In this document: piece after piece, positions 4,655 through 27,501 of the stretch
Layout of the letters: the number at the start of each line of letters is the position of its first letter
Numbering within the stretch: position 1 is the stretch's first letter
Origin: Alphaproteobacteria bacterium
Lineage (GTDB): Bacteria; Pseudomonadota; Alphaproteobacteria; UBA2966
Assembly: GCA_018650465.1 (NCBI GenBank)
Contig: JABIFY010000057.1
Location: 1 to 54,460, forward strand
DNA: 54,460 bases
Direction of reading: 5' to 3'
Program-made: the position numbers and the translations under genes
The notes under the pieces: generated by a model
Told to the model about the DNA's origin: nothing
The model's database searches: none
The model's input: the letters and a program-made list of their open reading frames with translations, nothing else

Positions 4655-5632
4655 TCAGTAGCGAACCAGACATGCACCCCAGGTGAATCCGCCACCCATA
4701 GCTTCCATCAACAACAAGTCACCAGACTTGATGCGCCCGTCGTCAACCGCGGCTTTCAAGGCCAAAGGCACGGAAGCAGCGGAGGTATTAGCATGTTGGT
4801 CAACGGTCACAATGACTTTGGCGGGATCAATCCCGAGTTTCTTTGCCGTGCCGTCAAGAATACGTTTATTCGCCTGATGTGGAACAACCCAATCAATAGA
4901 TTCTTCTTTAAGATCAACTAGGTCAAGTGTTTCCTTAACAACGGAACTCAAGTTTCTAACGGCGTGTTTAAAAACCTGGCTACCTTCCATCCTGAGAAAA
5001 CCGGTTGTCTGGGTCGATGATGGTCCACCATCGACATACAGCAAATCATGATGCCGACCATCTGAATGGAGTTTCGAGGCCAGGACGCCATGGTCGTCTG
5101 TCGTCCCATTACCCTCTTCAGCCTGCAGAACCACAGCGCCGGCACCGTCCCCGAACAACACACAGGTTGTGCGGTCTTCCCAATCCAGGATGCGAGAAAA
5201 GGTTTCAGCGCCAATAACCAGGGCTGTTTTTGCCTGGCCTGCCTTGATGAAATTGTCGGCTGTTGCCAGCGCAAATACAAATCCGGAGCACACCGCCTGA
5301 ACGTCAAAGGCAAAACCATGTGTCATGCCCAATTTATACTGCACAGTTGTTGCAGTTGCCGGAAAGGTTTCGTCTGGTGTTGCCGTGGCAACAACGATCA
5401 AATCCAAATCATCGACTGACAATCCTGCATTGTTCAGTGCATCTTTGGCCGCTTCCGTCGCCAGATCAGAAGTCAATTCACCGTCCGCGGCCACGTGCCT
5501 GCGGGTAATACCTGAACGAGAAATAATCCACTCGTCTGTCGTGTCGACAATGGTCGACATCTCGGCATTATCGATAATGCGTTCCGGCAAATAACTGCCA
5601 CAGCCCTTGATTCGCGACCGGATTACACTCAC
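4655..5632 (-). CDS. fabH: Beta-ketoacyl-ACP synthase III (FabH)
   Basis: 325 residues, the family length. The thiolase-fold catalytic triad is visible: Cys in [12 protein letters not shown], His in [11 protein letters not shown], and Asn in [15 protein letters not shown]; the C-terminal [14 protein letters not shown] is characteristic. It condenses acetyl-CoA with malonyl-ACP to initiate fatty acid synthesis. The start is GTG at 5632, one base after the plsX stop, indicating translational coupling with plsX. Confidence 0.97.
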
Positions 5633-5633
5633 G

Positions 5634-6713
5634 TCAAACTACCTTTGTCGAATTTTCAGGCTCCGCCACACTCTCGGGCATAACCGAATTTTCAGGTTCA
5701 ACGCCATCGTGATGTAAATCACGGCTGATGCGCTCTGCGAAATCACTTCGGACCATATCGACAGCAACGCCAATTGCGTTGGCAAAACCGATTGCATCCG
5801 TACCGCCATGGCTTTTGACGACGACGCCATTTAAACCAAGGAATACAGCACCATTATAGGCACCTGGATCGACCTTGGCCTTGAGGCGGTTCAAAGCCGG
5901 TTTGGCCAGCAAATAGCCCAGTTTGGACAACCACGAGCTTTGGAAGGATTCTCGCAGGAAGCTGGAATAGAGACGTGCGATGCCTTCTGCCGTTTTCAGG
6001 GCTACATTGCCGCTGAAACCATCCGTCACAAAAACATCCACTGTGCCTTCGCCGATGTGGTCTCCTTCGACAAAACCGTAGAAGTCGAAAGCAAAATCGC
6101 CATCACGCAACATCTGCCCAGCTAACTTGACGGTTTCATTGCCTTTTGCGTCTTCAACACCGACATTCAACAACCCCACAGTCGGTCGCTTGATGCCCAG
6201 TTCGATGCGGGCGCAAGCCGCGCCCATAATAGCAAACTGCACAAGGTTTTCAGCATCACATTTGACGTTGGCACCCAGATCCAGCATGGCACTCTCGCCG
6301 CGAATCGTCGGGAAGAAAGAAATCATCGCCGGACGATCAATATCGGACTGGGTTTTCAGCACGAATTTGGCCATGGCCATGAGGGCACCGGTGTTGCCCG
6401 CGGACAACACGCCCTGGGCGTCACCATCTTTGACGGCGTTGATGGCCAGCCGCATGCTGCTCTGCCGGCCGCGGCGCAAGGCCTGGGCTGGTTGATCATC
6501 ACTGCCGATGGCTTGGTCCGTATGACGAATTTCAGCCCGGCCTTTCAAGCCAGGCCGAGCATCCAGCAACGGCTTGATCCGCGCTTCGTCACCAAACAAT
6601 AATACGTCAAGGTCCGGATAGCGTTCACACGCAACGACAACGCCACTGACGACCATAGCGGGGCCACCGTCGCCCCCCATGGCGTCCAGAGCAACGACAC
6701 TACGTTTACTCAA
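5634..6713 (-). CDS. plsX: Phosphate acyltransferase PlsX
   Basis: 359 residues starting at a TTG codon preceded by GGAG. The N-terminal [13 protein letters not shown] motif and internal [17 protein letters not shown] and [12 protein letters not shown] are PlsX hallmarks. The enzyme makes acyl-phosphate from acyl-ACP for PlsY-dependent phospholipid synthesis at the membrane face. The C-terminal 25 residues form an acidic tail with an internal repeat (VEPENS, then AEPENS) encoded by a short DNA duplication, beyond the usual core. It sits between rpmF and fabH in the conserved order. Confidence 0.96.
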
Positions 6714-6749
6714 AACGGTTCACTCCGGTCATTTCCGGGTGATCCGAAA

Positions 6750-6935
6750 CTAGAGTGCTGCCGAGGCGTCGACTACTTCACGACCATTGTAATGGCCGCA
6801 TTCACCGCAGACGTGGTGTGGGCGCTTCAGTTCGCCACATTCCTGGCATTCTTCATGAGAAGTCGAAACCAGACTGTCATGTGATCGTCTTTGTCCACGA
6901 CGCGAAGTCGAGATCTTACTTTTAGGTACGGCCAT
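6750..6935 (-). CDS. rpmF: 50S ribosomal protein L32
   Basis: A 61-residue basic protein with [20 protein letters not shown] at the N-terminus and a zinc ribbon [18 protein letters not shown], so the four-cysteine (C+) form of L32. It is a structural component of the large ribosomal subunit near the peptidyl transferase centre. It is followed after 36 bases by plsX in the arrangement that couples ribosome and phospholipid synthesis genes in many proteobacteria. Confidence 0.97.
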
Positions 6936-7072
6936 AACTCAATTGTTCCTCTAGTCAGTTCCCGGTGCAATACAATATTACGCCGGTACGCTTTTTCACT
7001 GCCCTGAATTTCACCAAGCGGAAACCCAGAACCTTTTTCTATTGTCTCAGTCAGGCTTTTCAGTCGGACTTT

Positions 7073-7747
7073 TCAGTCAGATTTCAATGAAGCCAATACG
7101 GCGAACGGATTATCCCGAACGACATCACCTTCATCATTGCCACTCTGGGTCTTTTCCATTTCCACATCTTTATGACGCGGATAGGGATCCAGAGACAGAG
7201 ACAGGTTTTCAACAATCAACTCGCCGATTTCAACGACCCCGGCCCGTAAAATCTCGGGTGGATCCGCCTCTTCGGAATCAAAAACCATTTCACCGTCTTC
7301 GAGGCCTTCCAGCCAGTCATCGACGGTTTCTTCCTTCTTTTCTTTCTTCTTATCTCGTCTGCCGGAATGTCGCGGCGTTCCGGTGTCGATTACATCGGCC
7401 GGATCCGCGCCCTTGGGCAGGAAATCTACTTCAAATTCGTCAGACACCGTCGCCGCAACGGGCTCCAGTGTCACCACGCAAGACTGTACCACATCCGCCT
7501 TGAAGGCGACATGTAGATGTATCCCCTTGTAGGGACCGCGTTGTTGTCTTCGCGACAGCAGCGGCGACGCAGTAACGTCTGCCTGCAAACTGTCCAGCGC
7601 CAGTAAACCCATTCTGGCTGCCAGAGTTTCACGCTCAGCATCTGTTGCTGAAAACGCAATAACTTCCCCATCTTCCGAGATATTATCAACACGGATGATA
7701 CGGCTGAACTCTGCTTCCTGAATGACATTACCGTTGTTATCGGACAT
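7073..7747 (-). CDS. YceD/DUF177 family protein (23S rRNA accumulation)
   Basis: A 224-residue protein of the YceD (DUF177) family, usually encoded just before rpmF, as here. Recognisable are the central PLLSRRQQRGPYKGIHLHVAFKADVVQSCVVTLEPV segment (a shortened family motif with V-x-Q-x-C-V-V-T-L-E-P) and the C-terminal DNPFAVLASLKSD. Family members influence 23S rRNA levels. Between them is a low-complexity Lys/Glu stretch (about residues 130-150) that lengthens this copy. ATG 7747 is chosen because GGAGG lies about 9 bases upstream; an in-frame GTG lies at 7759. Confidence 0.88.
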   Translation of the reverse strand: MSDNNGNVIQEAEFSRIIRVDNISEDGEVIAFSATDAERETLAARMGLLALDSLQADVTASPLLSRRQQRGPYKGIHLHVAFKADVVQSCVVTLEPVAATVSDEFEVDFLPKGADPADVIDTGTPRHSGRRDKKKEKKEETVDDWLEGLEDGEMVFDSEEADPPEILRAGVVEIGELIVENLSLSLDPYPRHKDVEMEKTQSGNDEGDVVRDNPFAVLASLKSD

Positions 7748-23675: not shown

Positions 23676-24140
23676 ATGGCAGTCAATAATTTCGCCAACA
23701 TCGCAGAAATGAAAGAAGCCGTGGGCACAGCAATGGGCCCCAGTGAATGGGTCACCATCGACCAGGACCGCATCAATAAATTCGCCGAGGCCACCGGCGA
23801 CCATCAGTGGATTCATGTGGACGTGGAACGCGCCACAAAAGAACTGCCGACCAAAGGCACCATCGCCCACGGCTTTCTGACATTCTCCCTGTTGCCCATG
23901 ATGAACTACGAACTCTATCAGCTGGAAAGTGCCGTGCACGGCATCAACTATGGCAGCAACAAACTCCGCTTCCTCAACATGGTCCCCTCGGGCTCCCGCG
24001 TGCGCGGCCACCTGACTTTGAAATCCGTCGAGATGCACAAGAGCGGCGGCTATCAGGTCATCGCCGAAGTCAGCGTCGAAATCGAAGGCCATGACAAACC
24101 CGCCCTGATCGCCGAAACGATTGCGGTGTTGTACGAGTAG
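23676..24140 (+). CDS. MaoC-like (R)-enoyl-CoA hydratase
   Basis: 154 residues with the hot-dog hydratase-2 signature: DRINKFAEATGDHQWIHVD, containing the catalytic Asp and His, then GTIAHGFLTFSLLP. ATG 23676 has GTGGAG upstream; the frame is open further back into the preceding gene but without homology. It hydrates trans-2-enoyl-CoA to (R)-3-hydroxyacyl-CoA. Short spacing to the flavoprotein suggests one transcript, and the pair may act on an acyl-CoA or aromatic degradation route; substrate unknown. Confidence 0.92.
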   Translation: MAVNNFANIAEMKEAVGTAMGPSEWVTIDQDRINKFAEATGDHQWIHVDVERATKELPTKGTIAHGFLTFSLLPMMNYELYQLESAVHGINYGSNKLRFLNMVPSGSRVRGHLTLKSVEMHKSGGYQVIAEVSVEIEGHDKPALIAETIAVLYE

Positions 24141-24165
24141 GTACGGGACCAATTGAGCAGCACAG

Positions 24166-24223
24166 CCAAAATCGGTGCCTGGCACGAGCGACTTCGCGAA
24201 GATGCCTGGCTCCGATTTTGGCG
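24166..24223. repeat. REP-like hairpin element, copy 1
   Basis: A perfect 11-bp outer inverted repeat, GCCAAAATCGG (24166-24176) with CCGATTTTGGC (24213-24223), encloses TGCCTGGCAC, the 10-base palindrome CTTCGCGAAG (24193-24202), and TGCCTGGCT. The 42-base core (24174-24215) recurs in inverted orientation at 26452-26493 with about 8 differences. It lies 25 bases after the MaoC gene. Non-coding. Confidence 0.85.
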
Positions 24224-24261
24224 GTAGTTTCCGCCCCCGCAACACGACCAACTCGCAGGCA

Positions 24262-24290
24262 CAAAAAAACCCGCCGGAATAACTGGCGGG
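24262..24290 (-). terminator. Intrinsic terminator of the proline-rich hypothetical gene
   Basis: On the minus strand CCCGCCAG (24290-24283) pairs with CCGGCGGG (24277-24270) around TTATT, followed by TTTTTTTG. It ends the transcript of the gene at 24320-25201. Confidence 0.88.
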
Positions 24291-24319
24291 GCTTACGGGT
24301 TGGTCGATCTGAATTTGCT

Positions 24320-25201
24320 TTAGGTCCGGCGAGATTTTTTATCTTTCCAGACACTGTTGTAAAACAAATCCTTGAAACGTGGGTTTTCCGGCAGCGGATA
24401 ATAATCCGGGTCGTCCAGATCCTCTGGTCGATCAGGCACCATCGTCTGACTAACCGCAATCTGCTCTGGCAGTTTCGGAAATTTCTGCGTTGCCAAGGCG
24501 ATGGCTTCATCCGGCCAGACCTCGTGTACATTTTCCTTGTAGGCCATGGCCGGATAAATCTTCTCACCCAAATCCAATGACTGCCCATCGAGTCGTACCA
24601 GGGGCGGCAATTGCGGTTTACCATTGGCCGAGGTCGGCAAAGTAAATTGCGCAGGCGGTATAGCAGTGGATTGCGGTGCTTCATAGGCTGGCACAACAGG
24701 TGCAGCTACCGGTGCAATTGGGTCTGGCCGGACAGCATCCTGTTTAATGATCAGGGAAGTCAGTCCGGTATCTTGTCCTTGCTGAAGTTTTCCGGATAGT
24801 CGTATTCTCATTGATGACGCAAGCCGTTCACCAGAAGTATTCACAAAGCCAGTCTCACGCATTTCCGGTATGATCGGGTTTTGTGATTTTTGATCAAGTT
24901 GTGAACTACTGTTTCCAGAAGATGATCCGAGTGCGTTTATTTTACCTTGAATTTTCCTAATTTTCCGTTGAACAAATTCGATGGCGAGCAGCGCCTTTCC
25001 TTTCTTTACTTCAAGGCCATCATAGATCCTTTTTAGATCTGCTCTTTTCTGTGTTCCAGGTTTGGCACCTGTGTAATTGCTATACGCTTGTGTCGTCCTT
25101 GTCTTCAAATCTTGAAACTCTAAACCTTTCTTTAGAAGCAATTGATTGTTTGCGGTGAGTGCCAATTTCAAATCGCTTAGTTCAGTAGATACGCCGGGCA
25201 T
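24320..25201 (-). CDS. Hypothetical protein with N-terminal charged helices and Pro/Ala-rich linker
   Basis: 293 residues, no family recognised. Residues 1-92 are highly charged and helical, probably coiled coil (LLLKKGLEFQDLKTR; KKGKALLAIEFVQRKIRKIQ). Residues 93-110 are Ser/Gln-rich, and 159-193 form a Pro/Ala/Val linker. The C-terminal 90 residues are acidic and Pro-rich with DLDDPDYYPLPENPRFKDLF. No signal peptide, membrane segment or enzyme motif is visible, so a cytoplasmic scaffold-like protein is possible. Composition is more AT-rich than the flanking core genes. An intrinsic terminator ends only 15 bases upstream of ATG 25201, and the ribosome site is weak, so the true start could be downstream. 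Confidence 0.65.
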   Translation of the reverse strand: MPGVSTELSDLKLALTANNQLLLKKGLEFQDLKTRTTQAYSNYTGAKPGTQKRADLKRIYDGLEVKKGKALLAIEFVQRKIRKIQGKINALGSSSGNSSSQLDQKSQNPIIPEMRETGFVNTSGERLASSMRIRLSGKLQQGQDTGLTSLIIKQDAVRPDPIAPVAAPVVPAYEAPQSTAIPPAQFTLPTSANGKPQLPPLVRLDGQSLDLGEKIYPAMAYKENVHEVWPDEAIALATQKFPKLPEQIAVSQTMVPDRPEDLDDPDYYPLPENPRFKDLFYNSVWKDKKSRRT

Positions 25202-25215
25202 TGATTTTTCTTTCG

Positions 25216-25241
25216 AAAAAAAAAGACCGCATGAAGCGGCC
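25216..25241 (-). terminator. Intrinsic terminator between the two islet genes (possible attenuator)
   Basis: On the minus strand GGCCGC (25241-25236) pairs with GCGGTC (25230-25225) around TTCAT and is followed by nine T residues (25224-25216). It lies downstream of the membrane-protein gene and ends 15 bases before the next start codon, leaving no room for a promoter between. Confidence 0.85.
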
Positions 25242-25361
25242 TTGGGATTGTTTGTTGGTAATATCTTGGTGATCAGGCATCAATATTTCTTACATCGTTT
25301 TCTTCCATCCAATTGTTCGCGTTGCAGTTTGGCCACAGCCGTAGAATGGTTCAATTCAAAC

Positions 25362-26234
25362 TTAGGAACCAAACAAACTCACGCCGGTAAACAGATATAT
25401 GTAGTACATGATCTGCCCAGTTAAATTCGTGATATTATCATTTATCAAATAAGCACCTCGCAGGTTCCCAATTTTCCTGAGTTTGACTCCATGGATATCA
25501 GACTCTGAAATCATGGAAACATGCTGACCGTCTATAGTTTTGAGTCGAGGGTCTGGACCTCCCAAAACGACATCGGGATAGTAATAGTCACCTTCCTCGC
25601 CTTTAATGCAAAAAAATCTGTATGCCGGAACAAACAAGGACAGCTTGCGGTCCCCTTCGCAAATATCTTTGGACGGCTGGTAAACAATTTTTGTTATGTA
25701 GGTACTGGGTCTTGCCCGATCGACCAGCACGTAATCACTTGTCGATATTTTGTCATTCTTGAAGTCCCTTGGGTCATATTCGATAACATCGTATTGGCAA
25801 AATTGCGGGCAAAGAAGATCATTGTTTTGAATGAACAGGTCCAAATTCCCAGCGTCGCGGGAGGGTATAAAAAAAAGGCCTGCCAGACTGACAAGCACCA
25901 AAAAAACTCCTGACCTCAAATTCACTTGCTCCACAGTCCTTAGATCAAAGACCAAAAGGAACCACGTTACGAATAGACTGCAAAAAGATATGTTCACGGC
26001 AATTTCTTGCGGCAGGTTGGTATAAGTCGACAAATCGTATGGCATGTAGGAATGGACATATTCCGCAACAAAATAAAGGGCCATGAGAAGTGCCCCCAAA
26101 GTTCGTCGTCCAACAGCTATTTGGTGCAGACCAGGCACGATAATAAACAGGACCAGCCTGGTTGCATATTTACCTGTCCGGGCAATTGTCCAGTCAGGCG
26201 GCAGGAGGGACATTTTTGAATTCAAAATTTCCAT
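25362..26234 (-). CDS. Polytopic membrane protein with S26 signal peptidase-like domain lacking the serine nucleophile
   Basis: 290 residues. Four N-terminal membrane segments (about 24-38, 44-62, 79-97, 107-123) include PGLHQIAVGRRTLGALL, as in polytopic SPase relatives. A soluble domain (124-268) and a fifth membrane segment (270-288) follow. The soluble part shows SDYVLVDRARPSTYITKIVYQPSK (abridged: D-Y-V-L-V-D, then Y-I-T-K-I-V-x-x-P-x-x-D), matching the general-base Lys segment YIKRIVGLPGD of LepB (Lys182 here), and ISESDIHGV like the late S26 motif. The S-M-x-P nucleophile motif is absent. Catalysis is therefore doubtful; the S26 assignment is tentative. Not a paralogue duplicate of the canonical lepB at 36503. 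Confidence 0.65.
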   Translation of the reverse strand: MEILNSKMSLLPPDWTIARTGKYATRLVLFIIVPGLHQIAVGRRTLGALLMALYFVAEYVHSYMPYDLSTYTNLPQEIAVNISFCSLFVTWFLLVFDLRTVEQVNLRSGVFLVLVSLAGLFFIPSRDAGNLDLFIQNNDLLCPQFCQYDVIEYDPRDFKNDKISTSDYVLVDRARPSTYITKIVYQPSKDICEGDRKLSLFVPAYRFFCIKGEEGDYYYPDVVLGGPDPRLKTIDGQHVSMISESDIHGVKLRKIGNLRGAYLINDNITNLTGQIMYYIYLFTGVSLFGS

Positions 26235-26535
26235 ACCTACCTATATGCAAGGTTCAGGCGCTTTTTTTTGGTAATATCCACGATTTTATTGTTGGCAAAT
26301 GAGAAAAGGTGTTTGTTGTAATTTTCTCGCGACCTACCCCACCACATCTTTTTGCATAATATATGTTTTATACGTACTCGTCAAGTGAGTGTTTACACAA
26401 TTAATAAACCTTTTATTGGCATTATGAATTGGATACGCGGCAACCAATAAACGGAGTCAGGCAGCTTCGCGAAGGTGCTTGTGCCAGACACCGTTTTTCC
26501 TGGGTGTGTCTAAACAGCCGAAATTGCCCCTGCCC
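26235..26535. other. AT-rich intergenic stretch upstream of islet membrane gene
   Basis: 301 bases without a gene: an AT-rich segment (26270-26430) that should contain the promoter of the membrane protein, then REP-like copy 2 (26449-26496) and the end of the liv operon. No clear -35/-10 pair stood out. Confidence 0.5.
26449..26496. repeat. REP-like hairpin element, copy 2 (inverted relative to copy 1)
   Basis: AAACGG (26449-26454) pairs with CCGTTT (26491-26496). The inner arms are AGTCAGGCA and TGCCAGACA, and the same 10-base palindrome CTTCGCGAAG sits at 26464-26473. The core is the reverse complement of copy 1 with about 8 substitutions, while the flanking outermost bases differ yet still pair. 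It lies about 20 bases beyond the liv operon 3' hairpin. Confidence 0.85.
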
Positions 26536-26549
26536 CTACCGTTTCGGCT
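26516..26549 (-). terminator. Hairpin spanning the livM stop codon (possible terminator)
   Basis: AGCCGAAA and TTTCGGCT (26542-26549 and 26516-26523) are perfect 8-bp complements; the 18-base loop contains the livM stop (26536-26538). On the minus strand it is followed only by GTTT, so termination would be weak or assisted by the adjacent REP-like hairpin. Confidence 0.45.
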
Positions 26550-27501
26550 TTGCGTCTTTGCCGCCGGGGTGGCGTTCGGGCAGGATACCCGCTCCCCACT
26601 TTTGCAGGACGATGTTGAGCACCAGGCCGATGATGAACATACGCATATAGGGCACGCGTACGGCAAATTCGCCGGTCAGGCTGAAGGCCTGGATGACCAT
26701 TTCGGACATGGACCAGAGCGACCAGATAATAAGCGCGCCCAACAGAACGCCCTTGTTGTTGCCGCTGCCGCCGACGATCATCATCACCCAGACCAGAAAC
26801 GTGGTGAGTAGTGGTTCGGTGGCTTCAATGCCGATGAACTTGAAATAGTGGGCACTGAGTGCACCGCCCAGGCCCATGATGGATGAGCCAATGATGAAGG
26901 CTTCCAGACGCAGGCGTTCAACATTTTTGCCTGAGGCACGGGCGGCCAGTTCGTTGTCCCGGATGGCCCGCATGATGCGGCCCCAGGGAGAATGCTGGCC
27001 GCGTTCCAGCAGCAGGTAAACAACCAACAGAATGCTCAACACAAGGGCCAGGAATGCCAGGGGGCCGGCAAGACCGCCGAGGCTTTCAAAAGGTTTTGGG
27101 ATGTTGGAAATGCCACGGGCACCATTGGTGGCCCACATTTCATTTTTCAAAATCAGACGCAGGATTTCAGCAATACCAATGGTGGCGATGGCCAGGTAAT
27201 CACTTCGCAACCGAATGCAAATCTTGCCAACGAAGAAGGCGATAATGGCCGACGTAATCATGGCGGCAATGGCCCCAACCCAGAAGGGCATGTCGAATCC
27301 ACCGAGATGTTTGCTGGCTTCTTCCGTCGTCATGATGGCGGCTGTGTAGGCACCAATGGCGAAGAAGCCGGCGATACCCACATTGAACAGGCCGGTAACA
27401 CCCCAGTTCAGGTTCAGCCCCAGCCCCATGACGCCATAAATGGCGATCATGGTCAGCAACGTTATTGCGTAGCTGGAATAGCCCATCATCTGGTCTGACA
27501 T
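26536..27501 (-). CDS. livM: Branched-chain amino acid-type ABC transporter permease LivM
   Basis: 321 residues with about 8-10 membrane segments. It has the LivM/H permease signature GVTGLFNVGIAGFFAIGAYTAA near residue 35-56 and the EAA-like loop MRAIRDNELAARASGKNVERLRLEAF (abridged core A-I-R-D-N-E-x-A-A). It pairs with LivH in the inner membrane. Its ATG overlaps the livH stop (TGATG), indicating coupled translation. It is the last gene of the operon. Confidence 0.95.
   Translation of the reverse strand: MSDQMMGYSSYAITLLTMIAIYGVMGLGLNLNWGVTGLFNVGIAGFFAIGAYTAAIMTTEEASKHLGGFDMPFWVGAIAAMITSAIIAFFVGKICIRLRSDYLAIATIGIAEILRLILKNEMWATNGARGISNIPKPFESLGGLAGPLAFLALVLSILLVVYLLLERGQHSPWGRIMRAIRDNELAARASGKNVERLRLEAFIIGSSIMGLGGALSAHYFKFIGIEATEPLLTTFLVWVMMIVGGSGNNKGVLLGALIIWSLWSMSEMVIQAFSLTGEFAVRVPYMRMFIIGLVLNIVLQKWGAGILPERHPGGKDAKPKR

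What the first reader, a model, noticed from the sequence alone, without database searches (positions are those of the whole stretch)
24141..26535. Two-gene accessory islet bounded by inverted REP-like hairpins
Between a conserved catabolic cluster (+) and the livGFHM operon (-) lie two genes without recognised orthologues, each with its own terminator and AT-rich surroundings. Copies of one 42-base hairpin core occur in opposite orientation 2.2 kb apart, at 24174-24215 and 26452-26493, just outside both genes. This is the arrangement expected if the pair was captured by, or mobilised with, the hairpin element. It also separates a Liv-type binding protein from a Liv permease operon that may once have been adjacent.
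Basis: partly seen in the sequence, partly recalled or inferred. Interest (0 to 1): 0.6.

Follow-up and report, generated by a model that had tools for sequence, protein, structure and literature searches.

The report
Orphan gene-pair islet beside repeat hairpins
Two unknown genes at a variable spot in a marine alphaproteobacterial genome belong to a gene-pair family found only in this genus, with conserved outer ends and a highly variable middle, and the repeat hairpins beside them are ordinary mobile repeats that did not carry them in.

Summary
In detail: two inverted hairpins (24165-24222, 26447-26498) flank two genes without recognised orthologues, at GC 0.44 in a window of 0.52. The islet reading holds too. 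In the only congener held (G001), flanks at 80-83% DNA identity stop at the maoC and livM stop codons and enclose three unrelated genes, one matching candidate defence models.

The capture reading fails. The hairpins belong to a REPIN-like family (14 long and about 12 short copies, mostly inverted doublets) in a genome with one REP-type tyrosine transposase gene. G001's only strong hairpin copy sits at the same place behind maoC although its cargo differs, so the left hairpin belongs to the shared flank.

The gene pair is the more interesting part: about 11 loci, found in 2 of 385 Alphaproteobacteria, both of this genus. P2 is a membrane protein with a degenerate signal-peptidase-like domain. 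P1 has mostly unrelated heads and one conserved tail. Most copies share a promoter box and a terminator just before P1. Some copies keep both outer ends at 76-96% DNA identity while the middle is unalignable, which suggests allele exchange. Function is inferred: a polymorphic recognition or effector-immunity pair (about 0.3).

The parts
23676..24140 (+). maoC-like hydratase gene, left flank; DNA identity to G001 ends at its stop codon
   Evidence: PF01575 E 2.4e-23; 80% DNA identity over 4.4 kb ending at 24140
24165..24222 (+). left hairpin, long (A) type of the REPIN-like family; part of the shared maoC flank
   Evidence: a counterpart directly after maoC in G001 (C137:45549-45595)
24260..24291 (-). 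terminator-like palindrome behind P1; a decayed collinear counterpart exists in G001
   Evidence: 87% over 31 nt, 0 of 500 shuffles reach the score; resembles P1 ends of paralogues
24320..25201 (-). P1, 293 aa: variable head plus conserved C-terminal tail
24323..24613 (-). conserved tail of P1, shared by about 11 proteins of this genome
   Evidence: 38-58% identity to the window copy (alignment A4)
25223..25243 (-). terminator directly before the P1 start, conserved in position at 6 of 8 pair loci
25362..26234 (-). P2, 290 aa membrane protein with a degenerate S26 (signal peptidase I-like) domain
25449..25859 (-). S26-like domain of P2 with invariant Cys142, Cys146, Cys192, Cys209; catalytic positions replaced
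26337..26358 (-). family box TATGCAAAAAGATGTGGTGGGG at the -10/start region of the P2 promoter
   Evidence: 7 of 7 matches of the pattern in this genome lie upstream of P2 genes
26356..26384 (-). sigma-70-like promoter TTGACG-17-TATTAT of P2
   Evidence: 10 of 12 matches; aligned across paralogues
26447..26498 (-). right hairpin (long-type loop, closest to the C58 copy); no counterpart in G001
26536..27501 (-). livM permease gene, right flank
   Evidence: PF02653 E 5e-47; 94% aa identity to G001

Best explanation
Shown: the islet is one copy of a genus-restricted, multicopy two-gene family (P2 then P1), in a site between two convergent operons that holds other genes in the congener. The hairpins belong to an unrelated REPIN-like repeat family; the left one is part of the shared maoC flank and the right one is a separate copy, and neither looks like the means by which the pair arrived. 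Shown for some copies: the pair is a constant-variable-constant cassette. The promoter with the first ~50 codons of P2, and the P1 tail with the DNA behind it, are conserved, while the rest of P2 and the head of P1 are not. Inferred: the variable middle is exchanged by homologous recombination through the constant ends. Inferred, weaker (about 0.3): P2 is an inner-membrane protein whose degenerate signal-peptidase-like domain faces the periplasm and recognises the variable head of its partner P1; P1 carries its head on a common delivery or docking tail, and its synthesis is held back by a terminator just before it. The pair would then act as a polymorphic recognition or effector-immunity pair.
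For: Site: flanks 80-83% identical to G001, ending at both stop codons, with three unrelated genes between: a DUF2971 protein matching PADLOC PDC-S31 (E 3e-42), an ORF that looks protease-like by eye only, and a DUF5677 protein. Hairpins: 14 long and about 12 short copies, mostly as inverted A-B doublets in intergenic gaps, often convergent; one Y1 transposase gene, NF047646 at 81.8 bits against a cut-off of 80, flanked by hairpins sharing the GGTGCC-GGCAC core. G001's single strong hairpin stands directly behind maoC. Order there: maoC, A hairpin, degenerate B hairpin, terminator remnant, cargo. Order in the window: maoC, A hairpin, terminator, P1, P2, right hairpin. So the right hairpin is not the displaced partner of the left one. 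Family: P2 and P1 in 2 of 385 Alphaproteobacteria. Mosaic: C62a against C163 is 76-91% identical in DNA at the 5' end, 32-53% in the middle and 91-96% in the P1 tail; C58 against its G001 counterpart agrees at the 5' end (81%) and not beyond, with the P1 tail at 77%. P2 variable parts and P1 heads are similar in the same copies (Mantel p 0.005, or 0.016 without the G001 orthologue). P2: PF10502 above cut-off in one member, with Ser90 to His and Lys145 to Asn against E. coli LepB. Selection: dN/dS 0.23 (P2) and 0.43 (P1) at the C62a site.
Against: Only one congener is held, so gain and loss at the site cannot be polarised; a terminator remnant in G001 could mean that the pair was once there and was lost. 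Hairpins lie beside three of about eleven pair loci, more than random placement would give, although both favour gaps at operon ends. The co-variation test may reflect joint descent. The P2 structure model failed (mean pLDDT 38), so periplasmic placement of the domain rests on charges and cysteines. No toxin fold or secretion system was identified for P1. The S26 link of the window P2 runs through divergent family members.
Confidence: 0.75

Rival explanations
1. The two hairpins are the ends of one composite element (a stretched REPIN) that moves the gene pair with the genome's REP-type transposase.
For: Inverted orientation matches that of doublet partners; a REP-type transposase gene is present; hairpins also lie beside the pair loci at C58 and C69; DNA inserted between dimer partners has been described (PMC3733652).
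Against: The left hairpin is behind maoC in G001 with other cargo. Intact doublets are A-B, whereas the window hairpins both have A-type loops. The terminator remnant lies outside the B hairpin in G001 but between left hairpin and cargo in the window. Most pair loci lack these hairpins. At C58 the doublet is beside the pair only in G000.
Confidence: 0.07
2. The pair was at the maoC-livM site in the common ancestor and was replaced in G001 by three other genes; the islet is old there, not newly acquired.
For: A decayed copy of the P1-side terminator stands collinear in G001 (31 nt, 87%) with no minus-strand gene directly beside it; several other pair loci are syntenic in the two genomes.
Against: No P1 or P2 coding remnant is detectable in the G001 interval; the palindrome could be the original livM terminator, since several terminators of this genome share a TTTTTTTGTG tail.
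Confidence: 0.4
3. P2 is a membrane chaperone or export factor (pseudo-peptidase) for P1-type surface or secreted proteins, with no effector-immunity role.
For: P2 is related to signal peptidase I and its closest member lacks the catalytic residues; some P1 proteins carry an acidic, calcium-binding-like domain before the tail (PHROG 3677 E 2e-20).
Against: A general export factor would not need a hypervariable domain per partner.
Confidence: 0.3
4. The genes are decaying orphans without function.
For: One locus has only a P1 tail fragment (C68:99889-100029); one P2 is partly duplicated (C129).
Against: dN/dS 0.23 and 0.43 at the C62a site; invariant cysteines; promoter box conserved across strongly diverged copies.
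Confidence: 0.07

Closest known systems
REPINs / REP elements with REP-associated tyrosine transposases (PMC3116915; PMC3733652)
   Same: Intergenic inverted hairpin doublets with loops of different length, one RAYT-family gene flanked by hairpins with the same core, presence or absence between congeners
   Different: Low copy number (14 long copies), long units, no consistent GTAG or CGTC tag; excision not tested
Type I signal peptidase (S26, PF10502 / TIGR02227)
   Same: One P2 member scores above the Pfam cut-off and aligns to E. coli LepB around the catalytic boxes
   Different: Both catalytic residues replaced, four invariant cysteines, about four N-terminal membrane helices, hypervariable domain
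Polymorphic toxin-immunity modules such as CDI (own knowledge)
   Same: Two adjacent genes, constant ends, variable and co-varying middle, many copies, allele differences at one site between relatives
   Different: Conserved tail at the C-terminus and variable head, partner gene first, no known toxin domain, no known secretion system
Chromosomal variable sites with defence or orphan cargo (own knowledge)
   Same: Different cargo between the same two operons in two congeners
   Different: No integrase, tRNA or phage gene seen at this site; only two genomes compared

Membership tests
REPIN-like repeats | Two inverted hairpin copies form a short doublet | tested here: met
   A-B doublets at 12 non-window loci; not met by the two window hairpins themselves, which are 2.2 kb apart and both A-type
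REPIN-like repeats | RAYT gene in the genome, flanked by related hairpins | tested here: met
   C64:4863-5522, NF047646 81.8 bits against a cut-off of 80; its flanking hairpins share the core only
REPIN-like repeats | Mobility: presence or absence at otherwise equal sites | tested here: met
   about 200-bp doublet in C58, absent in G001; no excision data
REPIN-like repeats | GTAG or CGTC tag | tested here: not met
   flanking bases vary between copies
Composite element carrying the pair | Hairpins bound the pair on both sides at several sites | tested here: not met
   both sides only in the window; one side at C58 and C69
Composite element carrying the pair | Hairpins absent where the pair is absent | tested here: not met
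   hairpin behind maoC in G001 with other cargo
Type I signal peptidase S26 | Sequence homology to the S26 domain | tested here: met
   C157 member PF10502 26.4 bits against 22.9, TIGR02227 E 7.8e-7 but below cut-off; window P2 is linked to it only through the family
Type I signal peptidase S26 | Catalytic Ser and Lys | tested here: not met
   Ser90 to His and Lys145 to Asn in the C157 member; Thr at the Lys position in window P2
Polymorphic toxin-immunity pair | Constant and variable parts, co-variation of partners | tested here: met
   joint descent not excluded
Polymorphic toxin-immunity pair | Recognisable toxin domain | tested here: not met
   no significant Pfam, NCBIfam or PADLOC match for P1
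Polymorphic toxin-immunity pair | Toxicity of P1 and protection by P2 | not testable with these tools
   needs experiment

The most novel reading that the evidence does not exclude
A previously undescribed polymorphic two-gene system restricted to one marine alphaproteobacterial genus. Constant ends (promoter with P2 membrane anchor, and P1 tail) frame an exchangeable middle that encodes a pseudo-signal-peptidase recognition domain and its matching P1 head. About 11 alleles sit in one genome at operon ends.
Probability: 0.3. Interest if true: 0.65.

Novelty: new variant of a known kind. Interest (0 to 1): 0.4.

Why it matters
It separates two things that raw sequence invites one to merge: repeat hairpins that collect at operon ends, and gene cargo that turns over there. 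It also exposes an orphan multicopy gene-pair family with a mosaic like that of recognition or conflict systems, built on a signal-peptidase scaffold that has lost its catalytic residues. I found no description of such a pair (one literature search, turned up nothing close). Strain genomes of this genus could test allele exchange directly.

Tried and rejected
Structure prediction of P2 with four sequences gave mean pLDDT 38, so no fold search was made. PDB sequence searches with the P2 profile and the most S26-like member found nothing. A conserved RNA structure in the P2 leader was looked for: RNAalifold gave no pairs and Rfam nothing. Phage, plasmid and viral-contig searches for P1 and P2 were empty. 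The idea that the right hairpin is the displaced second half of the left doublet was rejected on element order. Co-duplication of hairpin and pair from C58 was rejected because the C58 P2 is only 28% identical to the window P2. The maoC dN/dS comparison failed through wrong coordinates and was not used. A BLAST search with the hairpin missed the G001 copy; the covariance model found it.

Full report
What is there. The window is contig C94 of a 4.8-Mb assembly of 163 contigs. Between maoC (stop at 24140) and livM (stop at 26536) lie, from left to right, a 58-nt hairpin at 24165-24222, a terminator palindrome near 24270-24292, gene P1 (24320-25201, minus), a terminator at 25223-25243, gene P2 (25362-26234, minus), the P2 promoter at 26356-26384 and a second hairpin at 26447-26498. 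The two hairpins are inverted relative to each other and 84% alike over 50 nt. The islet has GC 0.44 against 0.524 for the window.

The site is variable. In G001 the flanks align at 80-83% DNA identity and the alignment ends at the maoC and livM stop codons. The 3.1 kb between holds three other genes: a DUF2971 protein that matches PADLOC models PDC-S31 (E 3e-42), an ORF that looks protease-like by eye but has no family match, and a DUF5677 protein. So the islet reading is right in the sense that cargo differs between two congeners. With two genomes, gain and loss cannot be told apart.

The hairpins. A covariance model finds 14 long (A) hairpins and about 12 short (B) ones in the genome. Outside the window they stand mostly as inverted A-B doublets spanning about 130-190 bp, in intergenic gaps, most often between convergent genes. 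The genome has one gene of the REP-associated tyrosine transposase family (C64:4863-5522; 81.8 bits against a cut-off of 80), flanked by hairpins that share the GGTGCC-GGCAC core. This is the anatomy of REPINs (PMC3116915) and of REP heterodimers with different loop lengths (PMC3733652), without a constant GTAG or CGTC tag.

The hairpins did not bring the genes. G001 has one strong match to the hairpin model in its whole genome, and it stands directly behind maoC, where the window has its left hairpin. A degenerate second hairpin follows it, then a remnant of the terminator palindrome (31 nt, 87%, none of 500 shuffles as good), then the other cargo. The left hairpin and the terminator region are thus shared flank. 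The right hairpin has no counterpart in G001. Since the terminator lies outside the G001 doublet, the right hairpin cannot be the left one's partner pushed aside by the cargo. At the atp-operon locus C58 the pair is in both genomes while a doublet of about 200 bp next to it is only in G000. Most pair loci have no hairpin of this family next to them. Hairpins do lie at three pair loci (window, C58, C69), more than uniform placement would give, but both favour gaps at operon ends; this association is not fully explained.

The gene pair is a family. P2 relatives occur at about eleven sites of this genome and five or six of G001, and in none of the other 383 Alphaproteobacteria searched. The conserved tail of P1 has the same distribution. 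Phage, plasmid and viral collections gave nothing. Contig ends C27/C114 and C68/C157 overlap exactly and appear to join split loci. P2 is usually followed by P1 on the same strand, and commonly lies behind the end of an operon transcribed in the same direction: atpC, acrB, accA, a ketopantoate reductase gene, livM. Three G000 sites are syntenic in G001 with DNA identity on the flanks (C62a, C58, C69), and C83 matches a fourth.

Regulation. The region upstream of P2 is conserved across copies whose proteins share only 28-45% identity with the window P2: a TTGACA-17-TATATT-like promoter, the box TGTGCAAAAAGATGTGATGGGG, and CCCTGCATA just before the start. All seven matches of the box in this genome lie before P2 genes. 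No conserved RNA structure was found. Directly before the P1 start most loci (6 of 8) carry a small terminator, so P1 probably depends on read-through or on its own promoter (inference).

P2. The most S26-like member scores above the Pfam cut-off for peptidase S26 and aligns to E. coli signal peptidase I with Ser90 replaced by His and Lys145 by Asn (that these are the LepB catalytic residues is own knowledge). In the window protein the Lys position is Thr. Four cysteines are invariant. The poor model shows four N-terminal helices. Charge distribution and cysteines suggest that the domain faces the periplasm; this is inference.

Mosaic structure. C62a and C163 are 76-91% identical in DNA over the promoter and the first about 50 codons of P2, 32-53% (no better than unrelated) over the rest of P2 and the head of P1, and 91-96% over the P1 tail. 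At the syntenic C58 site the two species agree at the 5' end and in the P1 tail but not between. At C62a, by contrast, the two species have close pairs with lower dS than the neighbouring acrB gene (0.34-0.39 against 1.07), which suggests exchange between lineages. P1 heads are unrelated between most loci; where heads are related, the P2 variable parts tend to be so too (Mantel p 0.005, 0.016 without the orthologue). The window pair groups with C62a in both genes.

Interpretation. The well-supported part: a genus-specific multicopy pair with constant ends and variable middle, in a variable site, beside REPIN-like repeats that are a separate matter. The inferred part: exchange by recombination in the constant ends, and a matching pair in which P2 recognises the head of P1. 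Effector-immunity is one form, a pseudo-peptidase export factor another. Both need experiments. dN/dS of 0.23 and 0.43 at C62a says that the genes are under selection.

Noticed in passing
L082 (G001:C137:38000-50000), 4659-7308: At the equivalent site G001 carries a DUF2971 protein (PADLOC PDC-S31, E 3e-42), an ORF that looks protease-like and a DUF5677 protein, possibly a defence-type islet.
   Followed up: partly
L088 (G000:C64:3500-9000), 1364-2023: The only Y1/REP-type transposase gene of the genome, flanked by hairpins whose GGTGCC-GGCAC core matches the window hairpins.
   Followed up: partly
L056 3800-3930 and 6130-6290; L057 5410-5560 and 13480-13620; L066 6826-6965; L060 3660-3740: A second palindromic repeat (CCGTCACCCCGCACTTGATGCGGGGTCCATGC), resembling CGTC-type REPs, lies behind P1 at several pair loci and on both sides of the C62a pair.
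   Followed up: partly
L056 against L068 (C62a site): P2 and P1 have dS 0.34-0.39 between the two species while the neighbouring acrB has 1.07, as if the pair had been exchanged recently between lineages.
   Followed up: partly
L058:59-1447 (-): A P2 gene with a second copy of the S26-like domain fused behind the first.
   Followed up: no
L057:5701-7344, L065:3962-5371, L071:4994-6439: Three long P1 proteins carry an acidic LDLDGDG-type domain with glycine-rich stretches before the common tail (PHROG 3677, E 2e-20 for the first).
   Followed up: partly
window 25223-25243 and pair loci L056, L068, L060, L061, L057: A small terminator directly before the P1 start at 6 of 8 pair loci suggests that P1 is expressed by read-through.
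   Followed up: partly
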